Assembly (NCBI RefSeq): GCF_004006665.1
Contig: NZ_QOCL01000014.1
Coordinates: 248,001 to 312,000 of the forward strand
Length of the DNA stretch: 64,000 nucleotides
Direction: 5' to 3'
DNA from: Halobacteriovorax sp. HLS
Lineage (GTDB): Bacteria > Bdellovibrionota > Bacteriovoracia > Bacteriovoracales > Bacteriovoracaceae
Part shown: positions 7,864 to 15,988 of the stretch, piece by piece
How positions within the stretch are numbered: the stretch's first letter is position 1
Layout of the letters: the number at the start of each line of letters is the position of its first letter
Notes under the pieces: model-generated
The model's input: only the letters and a program-made list of their open reading frames with translations
Database searches by the model: none
What the model was told of the DNA's origin: nothing
Made by a program: the position numbers and the translations under genes

Positions 7864-8634
7864 ATGAATTCTACAATTAAGTACAGCGCTATAGCGCTCT
7901 GTCTATTTTCTACGACTCAAACCTTTGCTGTATCGAAGAGTAATTTCTGTTCTGTAAGGGCCACTTCTACATCAATCAAAAAAAATGTTTTTAATAGTGA
8001 GCAGTTTCTAACTTTTAGAAATCAGGGAGGCTTAATTAATGGAGGCGTCTGCTGGTGGCATAGTAGGTTTCAAAGAAATGCAATGTTACTTGTAAGATTT
8101 AGGGAAAACCTAGATTTTCCAACTCTAGAGCAAGCAAAGGATATTATTAAAAAGATTAGGAAAGGAAAGAGTGTTGTTGAGTTGCCAGGATTTAGCTCAA
8201 TTAGTGAGTTCTCTTATCAGTTTAGGGATGAAATCCAAGAAGAATTAGAGAAGTGGCAAATTGCAGATGGTTTTCTTCGTCAGCAGTGGATTGTTGGGCT
8301 TGCTGGAACAAGTAACACGACTGAGAAAAAATTGAAAAAGAAAATGGATGAGCTCTATCAGTATGTAAAAGTTGAAGGAAATATTGCTTATCAAAAACTG
8401 CAGATTAAAGGAGTTGACGCTCACGCTTGGCTAGTTTCTGATATAGCCAAGACTGAAAATGGATACGATTTAAAAGTACTAGATTCCAATTATCAAAGGA
8501 CTCAGGTTTATAAATATGTTGAAGGAATGACTTCATTTTACCATTCTTACTATGGAAATTTTGTTCCATATACAGAAAGAAAAAGAGAATATAGAAAAGT
8601 TCTTAAGACTGTAAAAAAATATTGTAAGCAGTAA
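7864..8634 (+). CDS. Exported protein with papain-like Cys-His-Asp/Asn arrangement
   Basis: A 256-residue protein with a signal peptide (cleavage near residue 22, after TFA). Three spaced motifs resemble a papain-fold cysteine peptidase: C63 within GGVCWWHSRFQ, H187 within VDAHAWLVSD, and D207/N209 within LKVLDSN. Between them is a helical section with a Lys-rich stretch. The pattern is what I see; peptidase activity is inference, and a transglutaminase-like or inactive relative is possible. A GAGGAG Shine-Dalgarno precedes the start. It is flanked by a strong two-way terminator, so it is likely a single-gene unit. Confidence 0.85.
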   Translation: MNSTIKYSAIALCLFSTTQTFAVSKSNFCSVRATSTSIKKNVFNSEQFLTFRNQGGLINGGVCWWHSRFQRNAMLLVRFRENLDFPTLEQAKDIIKKIRKGKSVVELPGFSSISEFSYQFRDEIQEELEKWQIADGFLRQQWIVGLAGTSNTTEKKLKKKMDELYQYVKVEGNIAYQKLQIKGVDAHAWLVSDIAKTENGYDLKVLDSNYQRTQVYKYVEGMTSFYHSYYGNFVPYTERKREYRKVLKTVKKYCKQ

Positions 8635-8681: not shown

Positions 8682-9410
8682 TTAATGAATTTCGAGCTCT
8701 TTTGCGACTTTAATTGTTCCAACATCAGAATCAGTATAGGCATTGAAAGGATCATTTTCTAAATCCTCTTTACTCATTTTCTTTATCCAAATAACATGTC
8801 CAGTTTTGGTACTCCAAGAAACAAAGTCGTCTTTAGAAGTGTCAGGATCTCTATTTAAATTAAAATATTTCTTTGCTGTTGCAATTGCCTGTTCAAATGC
8901 ATCTATTCCCGGCCTATATTCAAATGACATATGTTGTACAAATGAGTTTCCTTCTTCATCTTGAAATATCTGTGCATGAAAATATCTAGTTCCTGGAAGA
9001 GTATTTTGGGTTCTAATAATAGTCATTTTCCCAGTATGCTCATTACTATCGTTAGCGATGGTAAGGTTTAGTCCTTTGGAGGTGAGATTATCTTTGAGTT
9101 CTTCAATATCAATATTATCGTTTGCAAGTAGTGATAGTGTTTCACTCATTTGAATCAAAGACTTTCCACTTTTGTCTTCAGGAATAGGAACAACTTTTAT
9201 GAGTTTCTTAGGTTCTTTTTTAGTGTTGTCTGGACCTGGTGAGAGATGACTATGGGAGGAGTGATCATGAGTAGGCTGTGAAGGAGACTGAGCACTTTCT
9301 TTGTGCTCAATCGTTTGGTCTGAGGTCTCTAGCTTAGGGGATTTCAAGTTATGATAGTAAAAATAAAATCCTGCACTGATAATAACTATTAGACCTAGAG
9401 TTTTTTTCAT
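8682..9410 (-). CDS. Membrane-anchored periplasmic protein with His-rich linker
   Basis: A 242-residue protein. Residues 1-20 form a hydrophobic signal anchor, followed by a Ser/Pro/His linker containing HDHSSHSH (about 48-55) that could bind metal. A folded domain of about 150 residues follows, which I do not recognise. Its start overlaps the stop of the M23-like gene (TAATG, one base shared), so the two are translationally coupled and probably act together at the envelope. The linker length would let the folded domain reach into the periplasm or the wall. No catalytic motif is apparent. Confidence 0.85.
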   Translation of the reverse strand: MKKTLGLIVIISAGFYFYYHNLKSPKLETSDQTIEHKESAQSPSQPTHDHSSHSHLSPGPDNTKKEPKKLIKVVPIPEDKSGKSLIQMSETLSLLANDNIDIEELKDNLTSKGLNLTIANDSNEHTGKMTIIRTQNTLPGTRYFHAQIFQDEEGNSFVQHMSFEYRPGIDAFEQAIATAKKYFNLNRDPDTSKDDFVSWSTKTGHVIWIKKMSKEDLENDPFNAYTDSDVGTIKVAKELEIH

Positions 9411-11071
9411 TAAAATTTACCAATTTCCCATTTCTTTAAATAATTTGTTGGGTCCATAAGGTCACTTCTTCTTTTGTATTTATTTCCAGAAGTCGACAAC
9501 GGACCAGAACCTGTTCCTTTGAATAATTCAAAGTGTAGCATTGGACGACAGCAATTTGAATTAACTTTTCCCATATATCCTATTTGTTGTCCCATTTTAA
9601 CTTTACTTCCATTGTTTATTCCGTCTATCTTCTTTCCTGAAAGCTCACCATATCTGACAATAAAACCACCAGAGTGAACAACTTCGATAGCGTAAGTTCC
9701 TTGATAGAAGTAGTAATGATTTCTCACGACTTTTCCAGGTGCGACTGAAAGAATTGGCTCGTTTATATATCTATAAAGATCACAAGCAGCGTGACTTCTC
9801 GTTCCCCCGCCTCTTCTTGCGTTAAACATTCTCATTCCACTAGTATAGCTGTGAGTAGTCGCTTTAACCGTAGGAAACTCACAGCATTTCTCATCGTCAA
9901 TACCACTTATTTCTACGTCCTTTACTTGGTTAATAGTGCTAGTATCTCTTAAATATTTACATTTTGACTTCTGCTTTACATAGTCAGATGCAACCCATCC
10001 TACCCTTTGGTCTTTTTCCTCTCTTGCTGGAAATTCGACCTTTACAAACTCATATGTCGTACCTTCTAAAGTAAGCTCTTTCACTTCGTTATCAAAGCTT
10101 TGAAACTTCTTTACGACTTCGCCTGTTGTGGCCTTAAAGAGAACCTTGTCTAAAGAATCATCTCTCACATTTAAGGTAGAGCTCGGAATACAAACAACTT
10201 CTTCGAAAAAGCCCTCTGCTGTCGTTACAGATTCATTTTCGAGTTCTTTTTCTACCTCTTTTTGCGCTTTAATAATTTTCATATTCTTCTTAAAATTCTT
10301 CTCTATCTTTGCTTCGAATATTCCATTATCTTCAATTATGTCGAATTCTGTCTTTGATATAAGACCGTCTAGGTCATAAGCGGCTTCAAATGTTTCATAG
10401 TTTGATTGAAGTGAGCTTAATTTGTAAGACTTGATTGATGAAAAAATACTGGACTCATCTTCGTAGACACCCACAAAGGCGCTCGGAGATGTACTTGTAG
10501 CTAGATCATTATACACCCTAAAAAGTGAGTAATTTCTTCCGCTTCTTTCTCCGTCGCAGTTCATCTTATAGTAGCTTCCACTTGATTCTGCGAGCCAAAA
10601 AGACGAATCCTTTTCGCTAAGTTCATTGATATTTGTTTGAGAAAGGTTCTTGTGGTCAACTTCAAGAATATAGTCTTCGACAGAGTGTATAGAGTCTTTA
10701 AATAGATAGCCTGAGTCACTTCTTTTAGTGTACCAACGATTTACTTTTTCTTGAGTATTCGTATTAATACCTACAACTTCAATGAATTCGTAGTTACGTC
10801 TTTGTTTATTTTGTTTTAACTTTAAGATAGAGCCATTTACTAAGTGAGATTGTTTAACACCATTGTAGTTTCTTAGATTCTCTGTGCCTTGCTGCTTCCA
10901 TCCCGTGAAGCCACTAATTCTAAAAGGAATCGTGGTTGAAGGAATTATCTTACAAGAGCTGGCCTTGATAAGACCTTCTTGATTATCCCAAAGGAATACA
11001 GGAGTATCATCTGCCAGAACAGGGGAGATAATTGAATTCATGGCCAATAATGTAAGTAGTGTTTTTTTCAT
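9410..11071 (-). CDS. Exported SH3-M23 protein with degenerate peptidase site
   Basis: A 553-residue protein: signal peptide (cleavage near A20), an N-terminal section of about 250 residues I cannot assign, a bacterial SH3-like domain (about 290-366) and a C-terminal M23/LytM domain (about 405-545). The zinc-ligand positions are kept: H427 and D431 (HAACD) and H513 (MLHFEL). Both catalytic histidines of the LytM family appear replaced, by E476 in YGELS and by M511. This resembles the EnvC/NlpD logic, in which dead M23 domains activate amidases, rather than an active endopeptidase. Nine cysteines suggest disulfides. A TGTC-N9-GACA dyad lies 86 bp upstream. It is coupled to the 8682 gene. Confidence 0.9.
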   Translation of the reverse strand: MKKTLLTLLAMNSIISPVLADDTPVFLWDNQEGLIKASSCKIIPSTTIPFRISGFTGWKQQGTENLRNYNGVKQSHLVNGSILKLKQNKQRRNYEFIEVVGINTNTQEKVNRWYTKRSDSGYLFKDSIHSVEDYILEVDHKNLSQTNINELSEKDSSFWLAESSGSYYKMNCDGERSGRNYSLFRVYNDLATSTSPSAFVGVYEDESSIFSSIKSYKLSSLQSNYETFEAAYDLDGLISKTEFDIIEDNGIFEAKIEKNFKKNMKIIKAQKEVEKELENESVTTAEGFFEEVVCIPSSTLNVRDDSLDKVLFKATTGEVVKKFQSFDNEVKELTLEGTTYEFVKVEFPAREEKDQRVGWVASDYVKQKSKCKYLRDTSTINQVKDVEISGIDDEKCCEFPTVKATTHSYTSGMRMFNARRGGGTRSHAACDLYRYINEPILSVAPGKVVRNHYYFYQGTYAIEVVHSGGFIVRYGELSGKKIDGINNGSKVKMGQQIGYMGKVNSNCCRPMLHFELFKGTGSGPLSTSGNKYKRRSDLMDPTNYLKKWEIGKF

Positions 11072-13507: not shown

Positions 13508-14560
13508 TTAATAATTTGCTCTAAGGCCTAAGAAGACATTGAATTGTGCCGCAATAGGATAGTTTATTTCACTTGTCTCGTTCCACAATTCATCGATTTG
13601 AATTGGAGTTGTTGTGGAGAGAGTGTAAGGAAGATTAAAAATAGTTTCTGTACCTAAAATAAAATCAAGTCCAGTGCCTGGAATAAAGTCTTTGATAGCG
13701 TAAGTTAATCCAAGTTTAGGAGTGATTGAGTAACCAGTAAAAAGGCGTTCTTCAAATTGTCCATCAAGAGTTCCTTGCTCTACGGAGTATCTGTGCAAGT
13801 TGTAAGTGAAGCCACTAAATAGAGTTAGGTTTCTACTTTCATTTCTGTAAATGTCATATGAAATATAAGGACCTATTCCTATTTCACCATGTGTTTCCTG
13901 CGTGGTTCTTTGTGTCGAAACAAAGTAAGTGCTTCTTTGACCACTAAATTGTAGAGAACCGCCAAAGTAAAATCTATCAAAGTTATCAAATTCAACTTTT
14001 CGAGCGTAAATAGTATTGAATGAATACTTATTTCCAATTTGTTCTTCAAGTACAGTTGTCCCATAGTTAAATCCACTTTTTGCGGCAGGTCCAATACCGA
14101 AGGACATATAAGCTCTTGCCTTTCTTGGGTCAATCAATGGATAAGTGTCTGGAAGTGGTTCTTCTATTCTGTAGTCGGTTGGATCATAGCTCGCATAAGG
14201 ATTCATTTGTAGTTGATCTTCTCTTTCGTCATTATAAATAACTTTTACAAATTTCTTAGAAATCCATGCGTCTTCGCCTGCAGTGGTTAGGGTTTTTAAA
14301 AAGAGTATGTTCTCTTTATTCTGTGGTAGTGGTTCACCATTAGAGTCAACATTATAGTTCATCTGCCACTGACTATTGTTTAACTGATTAGAGTTGATAA
14401 ATAGTTTCTTTCCTTTTCGAACACGTTGGAGTGTTCTTGCCGATTGATCAGGGGCTGCAAGTAGAGGAGCTTCAAGAACAATGACTTCAGCATCTATGGC
14501 CATAGCACTATTAATAAAAATGACTAATAGAAGAGTTATGATTTTTTTTATAGGTTCCAT
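13508..14560 (-). CDS. SH3-like plus outer-membrane beta-barrel protein
   Basis: A 350-residue exported protein: signal peptide (to about A21), an SH3-like domain of about 90 residues, a short Pro-rich linker, then a C-terminal section of about 200 residues made of alternating polar/aromatic strands and ending in Tyr. That ending is typical of outer-membrane barrels recognised by the Bam complex. A periplasmic SH3 domain would plausibly bind peptidoglycan. Its start overlaps the end of the 14548 gene by 13 bp, so both are translated from one message. The two products look like distant paralogues with the same plan. Confidence 0.82.
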   Translation of the reverse strand: MEPIKKIITLLLVIFINSAMAIDAEVIVLEAPLLAAPDQSARTLQRVRKGKKLFINSNQLNNSQWQMNYNVDSNGEPLPQNKENILFLKTLTTAGEDAWISKKFVKVIYNDEREDQLQMNPYASYDPTDYRIEEPLPDTYPLIDPRKARAYMSFGIGPAAKSGFNYGTTVLEEQIGNKYSFNTIYARKVEFDNFDRFYFGGSLQFSGQRSTYFVSTQRTTQETHGEIGIGPYISYDIYRNESRNLTLFSGFTYNLHRYSVEQGTLDGQFEERLFTGYSITPKLGLTYAIKDFIPGTGLDFILGTETIFNLPYTLSTTTPIQIDELWNETSEINYPIAAQFNVFLGLRANY

Positions 14561-15579
14561 GTAAATTGATATCCTATGCTAAATGAACTTTGAGTCATTG
14601 TTGTTTTTTCAGGTGAAATGGGAGCTTGTCCAGGAAGTTCTGATTTTACTGAGCTTCTTATGAATGAATTCTCATATCCAAGAGAAATATTTCCATAACT
14701 TGTTTTGTATAGAGCTTCTAAGCCAATTTGCCATAATAGTGTAGAGAAACTAATTTTCTGTCCATTGTCTGAAGCGTTGAAAAATAGAGACTTCTTGACT
14801 GCCAGCTGAGTATTTAAAGCGAAGCTTCCTCTATCATAGAATGTATATTTTGCAGTAGGTCCAAAGTAGGCAGCATTCCAGATAGATTCTGAACTATCTT
14901 CAAAATTCAAAACCCCATATTGGTAGTCAAAAACAAGGCCAAAATCTACAGGGAGAAATGATTCGTAATAGAGTTTTACACTTACTGTGTTAGAGTTTGC
15001 GTTTCCATCAGAGTAGCCAAGATTCTGTCCGACATAACTCATATTTGAAGTATCATTTCTAAAGAGAAGATGTGTTTGAAGCGGTAGAACTTTATCCGAA
15101 GTATGGTTCTGAGTCTTAACGGGGTAGGTCTTATCGGCAGGAATTGTCGATCTTAGTTTTATAATATCTTGAACAGAGGTTAGGTTCTTAGTGTGAGTTT
15201 TATATTTAATACTCCCATCTTTTGATAGAATATAGGACCATTTTCCACCGTAGTAGATCTCTCTGGCCTTTACGTAGACTTTTCTTTCGTTATAGAAAAC
15301 TTCATTACCATCTAACTTTATAAGCTTAGAGTTCTTAGTTAGCGAGGCATAGAAGTTTTCAGGAATTAAGGGGTCGGTTCTAATGTATTCTTTGGGTTTA
15401 TATTTTCGGTACCGAATTTTGGAAATATCAATCGATTCAGATAAAGAATCGATTTGAGAGAAATTAACTTCATCTTCTAAAAATTCGTCTAAGACATCAT
15501 GTGGAGGAACTATTGCAATTTCCGATGCCATTACGTTTATACTTAATAAAATGATAAGAATTTTAGTTATTATTTTCAA
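14548..15579 (-). CDS. Outer-membrane beta-barrel protein, partner of the 13508 product
   Basis: About 343 residues. The frame can begin with GTG at 15597, but the TTG at 15579 has GAGG 7 nt upstream and starts exactly at the signal peptide (KIITKILIILLSI), so it is preferred. After the signal peptide come about 150 residues with an SH3-like pattern, then strand-rich sequence ending in SIGYQFTWNL, an outer-membrane barrel C-terminus. It overlaps nudB upstream by 17 bp and the 13508 gene downstream by 13 bp, forming a three-gene overlapping operon. Confidence 0.8.
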   Translation of the reverse strand: MKIITKILIILLSINVMASEIAIVPPHDVLDEFLEDEVNFSQIDSLSESIDISKIRYRKYKPKEYIRTDPLIPENFYASLTKNSKLIKLDGNEVFYNERKVYVKAREIYYGGKWSYILSKDGSIKYKTHTKNLTSVQDIIKLRSTIPADKTYPVKTQNHTSDKVLPLQTHLLFRNDTSNMSYVGQNLGYSDGNANSNTVSVKLYYESFLPVDFGLVFDYQYGVLNFEDSSESIWNAAYFGPTAKYTFYDRGSFALNTQLAVKKSLFFNASDNGQKISFSTLLWQIGLEALYKTSYGNISLGYENSFIRSSVKSELPGQAPISPEKTTMTQSSFSIGYQFTWNL

Positions 15580-15988
15580 GCCATTTCCTCGCTTCACAAA
15601 ATGCTAACCAATTGCTCTCGTATCCAAAGTTTTTATTATTTAACTGGTCTGCTTCATACCACTTAAAGCTTTGGTGCTCTTTTTCGCATAGAGATACATG
15701 ATGACTAAAAGGAGCAAGTACTAAATAAACCTTTTCGTGAACAGATTTATTCCAACGATCAGTGAAATCAAAGAAAATTGGAAGTTCTGTAAGTGTTCCT
15801 GTTAGGCCTGTTTCCTCTTGTAATTCTCTTAGCGCGCCTATTACGTAGCTCTCTTTATCTTCAACTGATCCTGTTACATTTTGCCAATGAAAATCTCTAT
15901 CTTCTTTGGTCTGTAACAAAAGTACTTTTGATCTTGTTTCTAAATCAAAAATAACTACTTGGACTTTTTTATGACGCTTCTCTTCCAT
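15563..15988 (-). CDS. nudB: Nudix hydrolase, NudB-like
   Basis: A 141-residue protein with a full Nudix box, G-x5-E-x7-REL-QEE-TGL, starting at about G40 (GSVEDKE). The surrounding sequence (HWQNVTGS before the box, then EHQSFKWYE) matches the dihydroneopterin-triphosphate pyrophosphatase branch used in folate synthesis, which also hydrolyses dATP. The specific substrate is inferred from that resemblance. It is the first gene of an overlapping operon with two outer-membrane proteins, a pairing with no obvious functional logic. Confidence 0.85.
   Translation of the reverse strand: MEEKRHKKVQVVIFDLETRSKVLLLQTKEDRDFHWQNVTGSVEDKESYVIGALRELQEETGLTGTLTELPIFFDFTDRWNKSVHEKVYLVLAPFSHHVSLCEKEHQSFKWYEADQLNNKNFGYESNWLAFCEARKWLENNN

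What the first reader, a model, noticed from the sequence alone, without database searches (positions are those of the whole stretch)
9410..11071. M23 domain that kept zinc ligands but lost both catalytic histidines, coupled to a His-rich partner
H427, D431 and H513 match the zinc site; the two catalytic His positions hold E476 and M511. Known dead M23 proteins (EnvC, NlpD) switch on amidases. The next gene overlaps by one base and encodes an anchored protein with a His-rich linker. This may be a two-part envelope regulator specific to this lineage. A zinc site kept without catalysis is unusual; the E476 position may create a new metal site.
Basis: partly seen in the sequence, partly recalled or inferred. 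Interest (0 to 1): 0.6.

Follow-up and report, generated by a model that had tools for sequence, protein, structure and literature searches.

The report
Cell-wall enzyme with swapped catalytic residues
A predatory-type marine bacterium makes a cell-wall-cutting-type protein whose two usual catalytic histidines are replaced by glutamate and methionine; the same swap is fixed in a whole family found in many phyla, often as a bacterial weapon, so it is more likely an enzyme with altered chemistry, paired with a membrane-anchored neighbour that may protect the cell, than a dead regulator.

Summary
The 553-aa protein (9410-11071, minus strand) has an M23 fold with zinc ligands H427, D431 and H513; E476 and M511 sit where active M23 enzymes have their two catalytic histidines. 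No displaced conserved histidine exists. The reading as a lineage-specific dead regulator is not supported. E/M is invariant in 89 of 89 distinct sequences of a well-supported M23 branch that spans at least nine phyla. In other phyla this domain ends an Rhs/Tox-PAAR protein, follows VgrG, or is paired only with a peptidoglycan-binding domain. It is often followed by a small exported protein, the layout of effector and immunity genes. In Bdellovibrionota it is instead a Sec-exported protein whose next gene is always the 8682-9410 family: 47 of 47 genomes, no real exception, although presence is patchy. The genome already has a coiled-coil EnvC-like protein without zinc ligands. My best reading is an active zinc peptidoglycan hydrolase with altered chemistry (Glu as base, Arg support) plus a membrane-anchored, periplasm-facing self-protection partner. 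Activity and inhibition are inferred, not shown. The His-rich linker is only partly conserved. New variant of a known kind.

The parts
9410..11071 (-). M23-type protein, 553 aa, Sec-exported, E/M variant of the active site
11012..11071 (-). signal peptide (residues 1-20, MKKTLLTLLAMNSIISPVLA)
   Evidence: read from the sequence; helix 2-13 in the model; inference
10679..10927 (-). SH3-like module, residues 49-131
   Evidence: structure match to the SH3b region of LytB, Z 8, 59 aligned
9974..10150 (-). SH3-like module, residues 308-366
   Evidence: Pfam SH3_3 E=0.0023, below its cut-off
9413..9883 (-). M23 domain, residues 397-553
9791..9793 (-). zinc ligand H427
   Evidence: 88/88 in E/M sequences and 9/9 in ordinary M23
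9779..9781 (-). zinc ligand D431
   Evidence: 88/88
9644..9646 (-). E476 at the place of the catalytic His260 of LytM
   Evidence: E in 89/89 sequences of the subfamily, H in 9/9 ordinary ones
9539..9541 (-). M511 at the place of the first His of HxH
   Evidence: M in 89/89, H in 9/9 ordinary ones
9533..9535 (-). zinc ligand H513
   Evidence: 89/89
9458..9472 (-). subfamily-specific C-terminal motif RRSDL, residues 534-538
   Evidence: R534 89/89, R535 and D537 87/89; absent in ordinary M23
8682..9410 (-). partner gene, 242 aa, overlaps the M23 gene by one base; proposed self-protection (inhibitor) protein
   Evidence: adjacent downstream gene in every Bdellovibrionota module seen
9348..9407 (-). 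N-terminal membrane helix of the partner, residues 2-21
9174..9347 (-). disordered linker of the partner with 5 His, residues 22-79
8685..9173 (-). periplasmic alpha/beta domain of the partner, residues 80-242

Best explanation
The gene pair is an exported peptidoglycan hydrolase with its membrane-anchored self-protection protein. Shown: the M23 fold; the intact Zn(His, Asp, His) site; the fixed replacement of both catalytic His by Glu and Met in a large well-supported branch; toxin-tip and immunity-gene layouts of its relatives; and the unbroken pairing with the partner gene in Bdellovibrionota. Inferred: the protein is exported by Sec, binds wall through its SH3-like modules, and cuts a peptide bond in peptidoglycan using zinc-bound water. 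E476 would act as the base (or hold and orient the water), and an invariant Arg (R420, R425 or R534) would steady the oxyanion, as Glu and Arg do in M15 enzymes of the same fold group; M511 would be a hydrophobic filler. The partner, held in the inner membrane with its domain in the periplasm and translated straight after the enzyme, would bind and hold the enzyme inactive until it is beyond the cell's own wall.
For: (1) E476 and M511 are invariant in 89 distinct sequences, 49 of them matching only a search pattern that contains neither residue. All sampled fall on one side of a branch with 100/100 support against 24 H/H domains. Decay would not keep two new residues and five other subfamily-specific positions (R420, Y433, R534, R535, D537) fixed. 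(2) In other phyla the domain is the C-terminal end of an Rhs/Tox-PAAR protein (L166), lies beside VgrG (L170), or is joined only to PG_binding_1 (L140, L148), leaving no other candidate for the toxic activity. It is also fused to amidase or lysozyme-like modules (L055, L056). (3) 14 such loci share a homologous small exported protein directly downstream; two Acinetobacter loci share another, lipoprotein-like one. (4) A. baumannii group Tpe24 (798 aa, M23, called a T6SS peptidoglycan hydrolase effector by prediction; PMC6833914) matches the 798-aa protein L053 in length and domain. (5) Partner and E/M M23 occur together in 47 of 369 genomes, partner alone in one whose contig ends before the M23, M23 alone in none. 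Median gap is 1 nt over 33 loci; one genome has two partner copies (L050), and separate modules within one genome (G131; L116 and L138) each keep a partner. A very diverged pair keeps the order, with the partner as a lipoprotein (L233). (6) Precedent: Bd3460 is a periplasmic self-protection protein encoded directly after the endopeptidase it inhibits in Bdellovibrio (PMC4686830).
Against: No activity has been measured for any E/M member found here. In classical M23 enzymes both His are held to be catalytic, so the simple forecast is loss of activity. Known M23 folds with incomplete sites have mostly become protein-interaction modules (PMC9662197). VgrG was shown beside one locus and Rhs/PAAR in one; many alphaproteobacterial and verrucomicrobial members show no exported protein downstream. 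The partner is not homologous to the downstream genes of other phyla (hhalign probability 1.5%), and its fold gives only weak matches (best Z 5.7). The window's genome has no T6SS sheath gene, so the weapon analogy need not carry over.
Confidence: 0.45

Rival explanations
1. The enzyme is active as above, but the partner is a helper rather than an inhibitor: a membrane tether, folding or zinc-loading factor, or activator that positions the enzyme at the wall.
For: The partner is anchored and has a disordered linker. Many partners have His-rich stretches in the linker or C-terminal tail (18 of 33; tails 17% His), which could handle zinc. The pairing in Bdellovibrionota is without real exception.
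Against: Duplicated partner genes beside one enzyme (L050) and the exported small proteins beside relatives in other phyla fit immunity better. The His stretches are missing in nearly half of the partners.
Confidence: 0.22
2. The domain is not catalytic. The zinc site is structural, and the domain binds peptidoglycan or another protein; with its SH3-like modules and partner it forms a wall- or prey-binding scaffold.
For: Both residues held to be catalytic in M23 are gone (PMC9662197). M23 folds with incomplete sites usually have binding roles.
Against: Zinc ligands are kept without exception, whereas the EnvC-like protein of the same genome has lost them. The domain forms the toxin end of Rhs and VgrG-linked proteins.
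Confidence: 0.2
3. One reading: a dead M23 that switches on an amidase, with the partner as co-regulator, in the manner of EnvC or NlpD.
For: EnvC and its complex with AmiB are among the closest folds (Z 15). The genome has one Amidase_3 protein.
Against: The genome has a separate coiled-coil EnvC-like protein (L004). The protein has no coiled coil. E/M relatives occur in effector settings with no visible link to cell-division amidases. The module is patchy even within the genus (G004 lacks it), unlike a division regulator.
Confidence: 0.08

Closest known systems
M23B peptidases (LytM, lysostaphin, StM23 9gy1, ShyA)
   Same: fold (Z 13-16) and Zn(His, Asp, His) site
   Different: both catalytic His replaced by Glu and Met; extra C-terminal RRxDL...P motif and invariant Arg residues not seen in ordinary members
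EnvC / NlpD / ActS amidase activators
   Same: M23 fold with an incomplete catalytic set
   Different: zinc ligands intact; no coiled coil; partnered with a different, conserved gene; an EnvC-like protein exists separately
LECT2 (mammalian M23 fold lacking a catalytic His)
   Same: M23 fold lacking a catalytic His (PMC9662197)
   Different: bacterial, exported, both positions fixed as E and M, effector-type settings in relatives
T6SS / Rhs peptidoglycan-hydrolase effectors of Acinetobacter, e.g. the predicted group Tpe24 (PMC6833914)
   Same: the same M23 E/M domain in a protein of the same length, 798 aa (L053)
   Different: window protein has a Sec signal peptide and SH3-like modules; its genome has no T6SS sheath gene
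Bd3459/Bd0816 endopeptidases with Bd3460 self-protection protein, Bdellovibrio (PMC4686830)
   Same: proposed logic: exported wall enzyme and periplasmic protector encoded directly downstream
   Different: serine DD-endopeptidase and ankyrin protein there; zinc M23 and a membrane-anchored alpha/beta protein here; unrelated folds
M15 peptidases (VanX, VldE type)
   Same: Zn(His, Asp, His) with an Arg near the water (VldE: PMC11667670) and, from general knowledge, a Glu base in VanX
   Different: the Glu here sits on the M23 position of LytM His260, not in the M15 position; geometry not measured

Membership tests
M23 fold family (Pfam PF01551) | profile match above the curated cut-off | tested here: met
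   51.7 bits against cut-off 28.7; Z up to 15.7 to M23 structures
M23 fold family (Pfam PF01551) | zinc ligands HxxxD and the second His of HxH | tested here: met
   H427, D431, H513 invariant
Classical catalytic M23 peptidase | first His of HxH and the His about 30 residues before it | tested here: not met
   M511 and E476, in all 89 subfamily sequences
Classical catalytic M23 peptidase | peptidoglycan endopeptidase activity | not testable with these tools
   no assay possible
EnvC-type amidase activator | degenerate M23 without zinc ligands, with N-terminal coiled coil | tested here: not met
   ligands present; N-terminal part is beta-rich and SH3-like; another gene, L004, fits the description
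EnvC-type amidase activator | binds and activates an amidase | not testable with these tools
   one Amidase_3 gene exists in the genome
T6SS effector with immunity protein | T6SS in the genome and no Sec signal | tested here: not met
   no TssC/VipB (PF05943) match in the genome; signal peptide present
Secreted wall enzyme with self-protection protein (works like Bd3459/Bd3460) | exported enzyme followed by a dedicated envelope protein, always together | tested here: met
   47/47 genomes, median gap 1 nt
Secreted wall enzyme with self-protection protein (works like Bd3459/Bd3460) | partner binds and inhibits the enzyme | not testable with these tools
   no complex prediction available; partner folds as an anchored periplasmic domain
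Known immunity-protein folds | structural match of the partner domain | tested here: inconclusive
   best row comes from the Rhs1-CT/RhsI1 complex, 6xtd_B, Z 5.7, 121 aligned, rmsd 5.2; below the level that can be trusted

The most novel reading that the evidence does not exclude
A multi-phylum clade of M23-fold enzymes has replaced the classical His/His catalytic pair by a Glu base (with invariant Arg support), converging on M15-like chemistry, and is used both as an antibacterial effector tip and, in Bdellovibrionota, as an exported wall enzyme with a dedicated, previously undescribed membrane-anchored inhibitor family.
Probability: 0.38. Interest if true: 0.7.

Novelty: new variant of a known kind. 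Interest (0 to 1): 0.55.

Why it matters
If the E/M domains are active, the rule that M23 proteins without both catalytic His are dead is wrong for a large clade, which annotation pipelines would misjudge either way. The clade gives a natural test of how a zinc peptidase can change its catalytic residues while keeping fold and metal. For Bdellovibrionota it offers a new candidate enzyme and self-protection pair beyond Bd3459/Bd3460, found in several families of the phylum. Its patchy distribution makes comparisons between close relatives with and without the module possible.

Tried and rejected
Viral-contig search with the full protein found nothing. PHROGs, NCBIfam and PADLOC gave only generic M23 hits for the enzyme and nothing convincing for the partner. 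Idea that E/M is a local loss: rejected. Idea that a catalytic His moved elsewhere: rejected. Idea that C430 replaces a lost ligand: not supported, since C430 is T, A, V or I in some members. Homology between the partner and the downstream genes of other phyla: none detected. Partner fold: no solved structure at E <= 0.001 and no Z of 8 or more. Literature searches for a non-canonical M23 with Glu or Met found no description; the library lacks most subscription journals. The Fisher value treats related genomes as independent and should not be read as a probability. No complex prediction tool was available.

Full report
What is there. The ORF at 9410-11071 on the minus strand encodes 553 aa with an N-terminal signal peptide, SH3-like modules (residues 49-131 match the SH3b region of LytB; residues 308-366 weakly match SH3_3) and a C-terminal M23 domain. 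H427, D431 and H513 are the zinc ligands. E476 lies on the catalytic His about 30 residues before HxH, and M511 on the first His of HxH (alignment; roles of these positions in PMC9662197).

Is it chance or decay? No. All fifteen full-length members within the family, the window's included, have E and M. A scan of 84,980 species genomes returned 79 loci. Pooling all loci in hand, 89 distinct domains carry E and M, nine carry H and H, and none is mixed. One of the two search patterns contains neither residue, and 49 E/M sequences match only that pattern, so the count is not an effect of the search. The E/M sequences sampled (55 rows) lie on one side of a branch with 100/100 support against 24 H/H domains. 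They share further fixed positions absent from or variable in ordinary M23: F399-P400, R420, Y433, R534, R535, D537, P541. The only conserved His are 427, 466 and 513; H466 is present in ordinary M23 as well, so the catalytic His have not moved elsewhere. A good internal control is L050, where an ordinary M23 (RYAHL, PHLHYE) lies in the same gene run as an E/M one.

Where the variant lives. It is found in Bdellovibrionota, Pseudomonadota, Campylobacterota, Myxococcota, Verrucomicrobiota, Acidobacteriota, Planctomycetota, Fibrobacterota and Binatota. Outside Bdellovibrionota the settings point to antibacterial effectors. L166 is Tox-PAAR plus RHS repeats plus M23-E. L170 lies next to a VgrG. 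L140 and L148 consist of PG_binding_1 plus M23-E only. L055 and L056 join the domain to amidase-like and LysM/lysozyme-like parts (read from the sequence and the record's annotation). The A. baumannii protein L053 has 798 aa, the same length and domain as effector group Tpe24, predicted to be a peptidoglycan hydrolase (PMC6833914); identity with that group is likely but was not checked by accession. Fourteen loci share a homologous small protein with an N-terminal hydrophobic export signal directly after the M23 gene, and two Acinetobacter loci share another. This is the layout of effector and periplasmic immunity protein. It argues that the M23-E domain does damage, hence is probably catalytic. 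This step is inference.

The partner in Bdellovibrionota. Product 8682-9410 is a membrane helix (2-21), a disordered linker (22-79) and a confidently folded alpha/beta domain (80-242; pLDDT mostly above 90). It matches no Pfam, PHROG, NCBIfam or PADLOC family convincingly. Among 369 genomes of the phylum, 47 have both genes, none has the M23-E alone, and one has the partner alone on a contig that ends before the M23 would begin. Over 33 loci the median gap is 1 nt. Two modules in one genome each keep their partner (G131; L116 and L138 from one assembly). One genome has two partner copies (L050). The most diverged pair found (L233) keeps the order, and its partner is a lipoprotein by its lipobox. 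The genes are gained or lost together: G004, of the same genus, lacks both. The His-rich linker of the window's protein is not a family rule: 18 of 33 partners have three or more His in the linker or the C-terminal tail, and the tails are 17% His where present.

How it most likely works. Shown: fold, zinc site, fixed E/M swap, effector-like settings of relatives, and obligate pairing with the partner. Inferred: zinc-bound water is activated by E476 instead of a His, with an invariant Arg steadying the transition state, as in M15 enzymes of the same fold group; VldE, an M15-type L,D-endopeptidase, has an Arg on the zinc water (PMC11667670), and the Glu base of VanX is general knowledge. The enzyme leaves through Sec, and the anchored partner shields the cell's own wall, in the manner of Bd3460 in Bdellovibrio (PMC4686830). 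The genome has no T6SS sheath gene, so a Sec-exported enzyme is the fitting form here.

Why not an amidase activator. The genome has one Amidase_3 protein (L186) and a separate coiled-coil protein with a fully degenerate M23 domain (L004), the expected EnvC. The window's protein has neither the coiled coil nor the loss of ligands, and the module is patchy within the genus. The possibility is not excluded, only unlikely.

Origin. The window is G000:C14:248001-312000. G002, of the same genus, shares a contig of 587,193 bases with Halobacteriovorax marinus isolate 36_234_T64, so the genus is most likely Halobacteriovorax (inference).

Limits. No activity data; no coordinates to measure E476 to zinc; no complex prediction; the partner's fold is not identified; the literature held is partial. 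Confidence is higher for 'active enzyme' (about 0.67, the sum of the best explanation and its first rival) than for 'partner is an inhibitor' (about two in three, given an active enzyme), which gives the joint figure of 0.45.

Noticed in passing
window 13508-15597, minus strand: Two overlapping genes for exported proteins of about 350 aa with beta-rich C-terminal parts (possible outer-membrane barrels), no Pfam match, conserved beside the M23 module in the genus.
   Followed up: no
window 7864-8634, plus strand: Exported 256-aa protein that converges on the partner gene, 57-64% identical in two congeners, no Pfam match.
   Followed up: no
L051 / L137: In G041 the partner gene is interrupted by a TGA and the M23 is cut by the contig end; possibly a decaying module.
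   Followed up: partly
L233:1845-4353: Very diverged E/M M23 (HPGCD, DYAEVY, RHMLHLE, RRSDL) followed by a lipoprotein version of the partner.
   Followed up: yes
L050:6510-11632: A 922-aa E/M M23, two tandem partner genes and an ordinary H/H M23 in one gene run.
   Followed up: yes
L139, L147, L148, L157, L162, L163, L166, L168, L169, L176, L177, L178, L180, L182 (gene after the M23): An unnamed family of small exported proteins, often with a GDFDGDG-like motif and ending in EAGxDxxLxWDG...P, that may be the immunity proteins of M23-E effectors.
   Followed up: partly
G000:C1:500120-500398 (L004): Coiled-coil protein with a fully degenerate M23 domain, the probable EnvC of this organism.
   Followed up: partly
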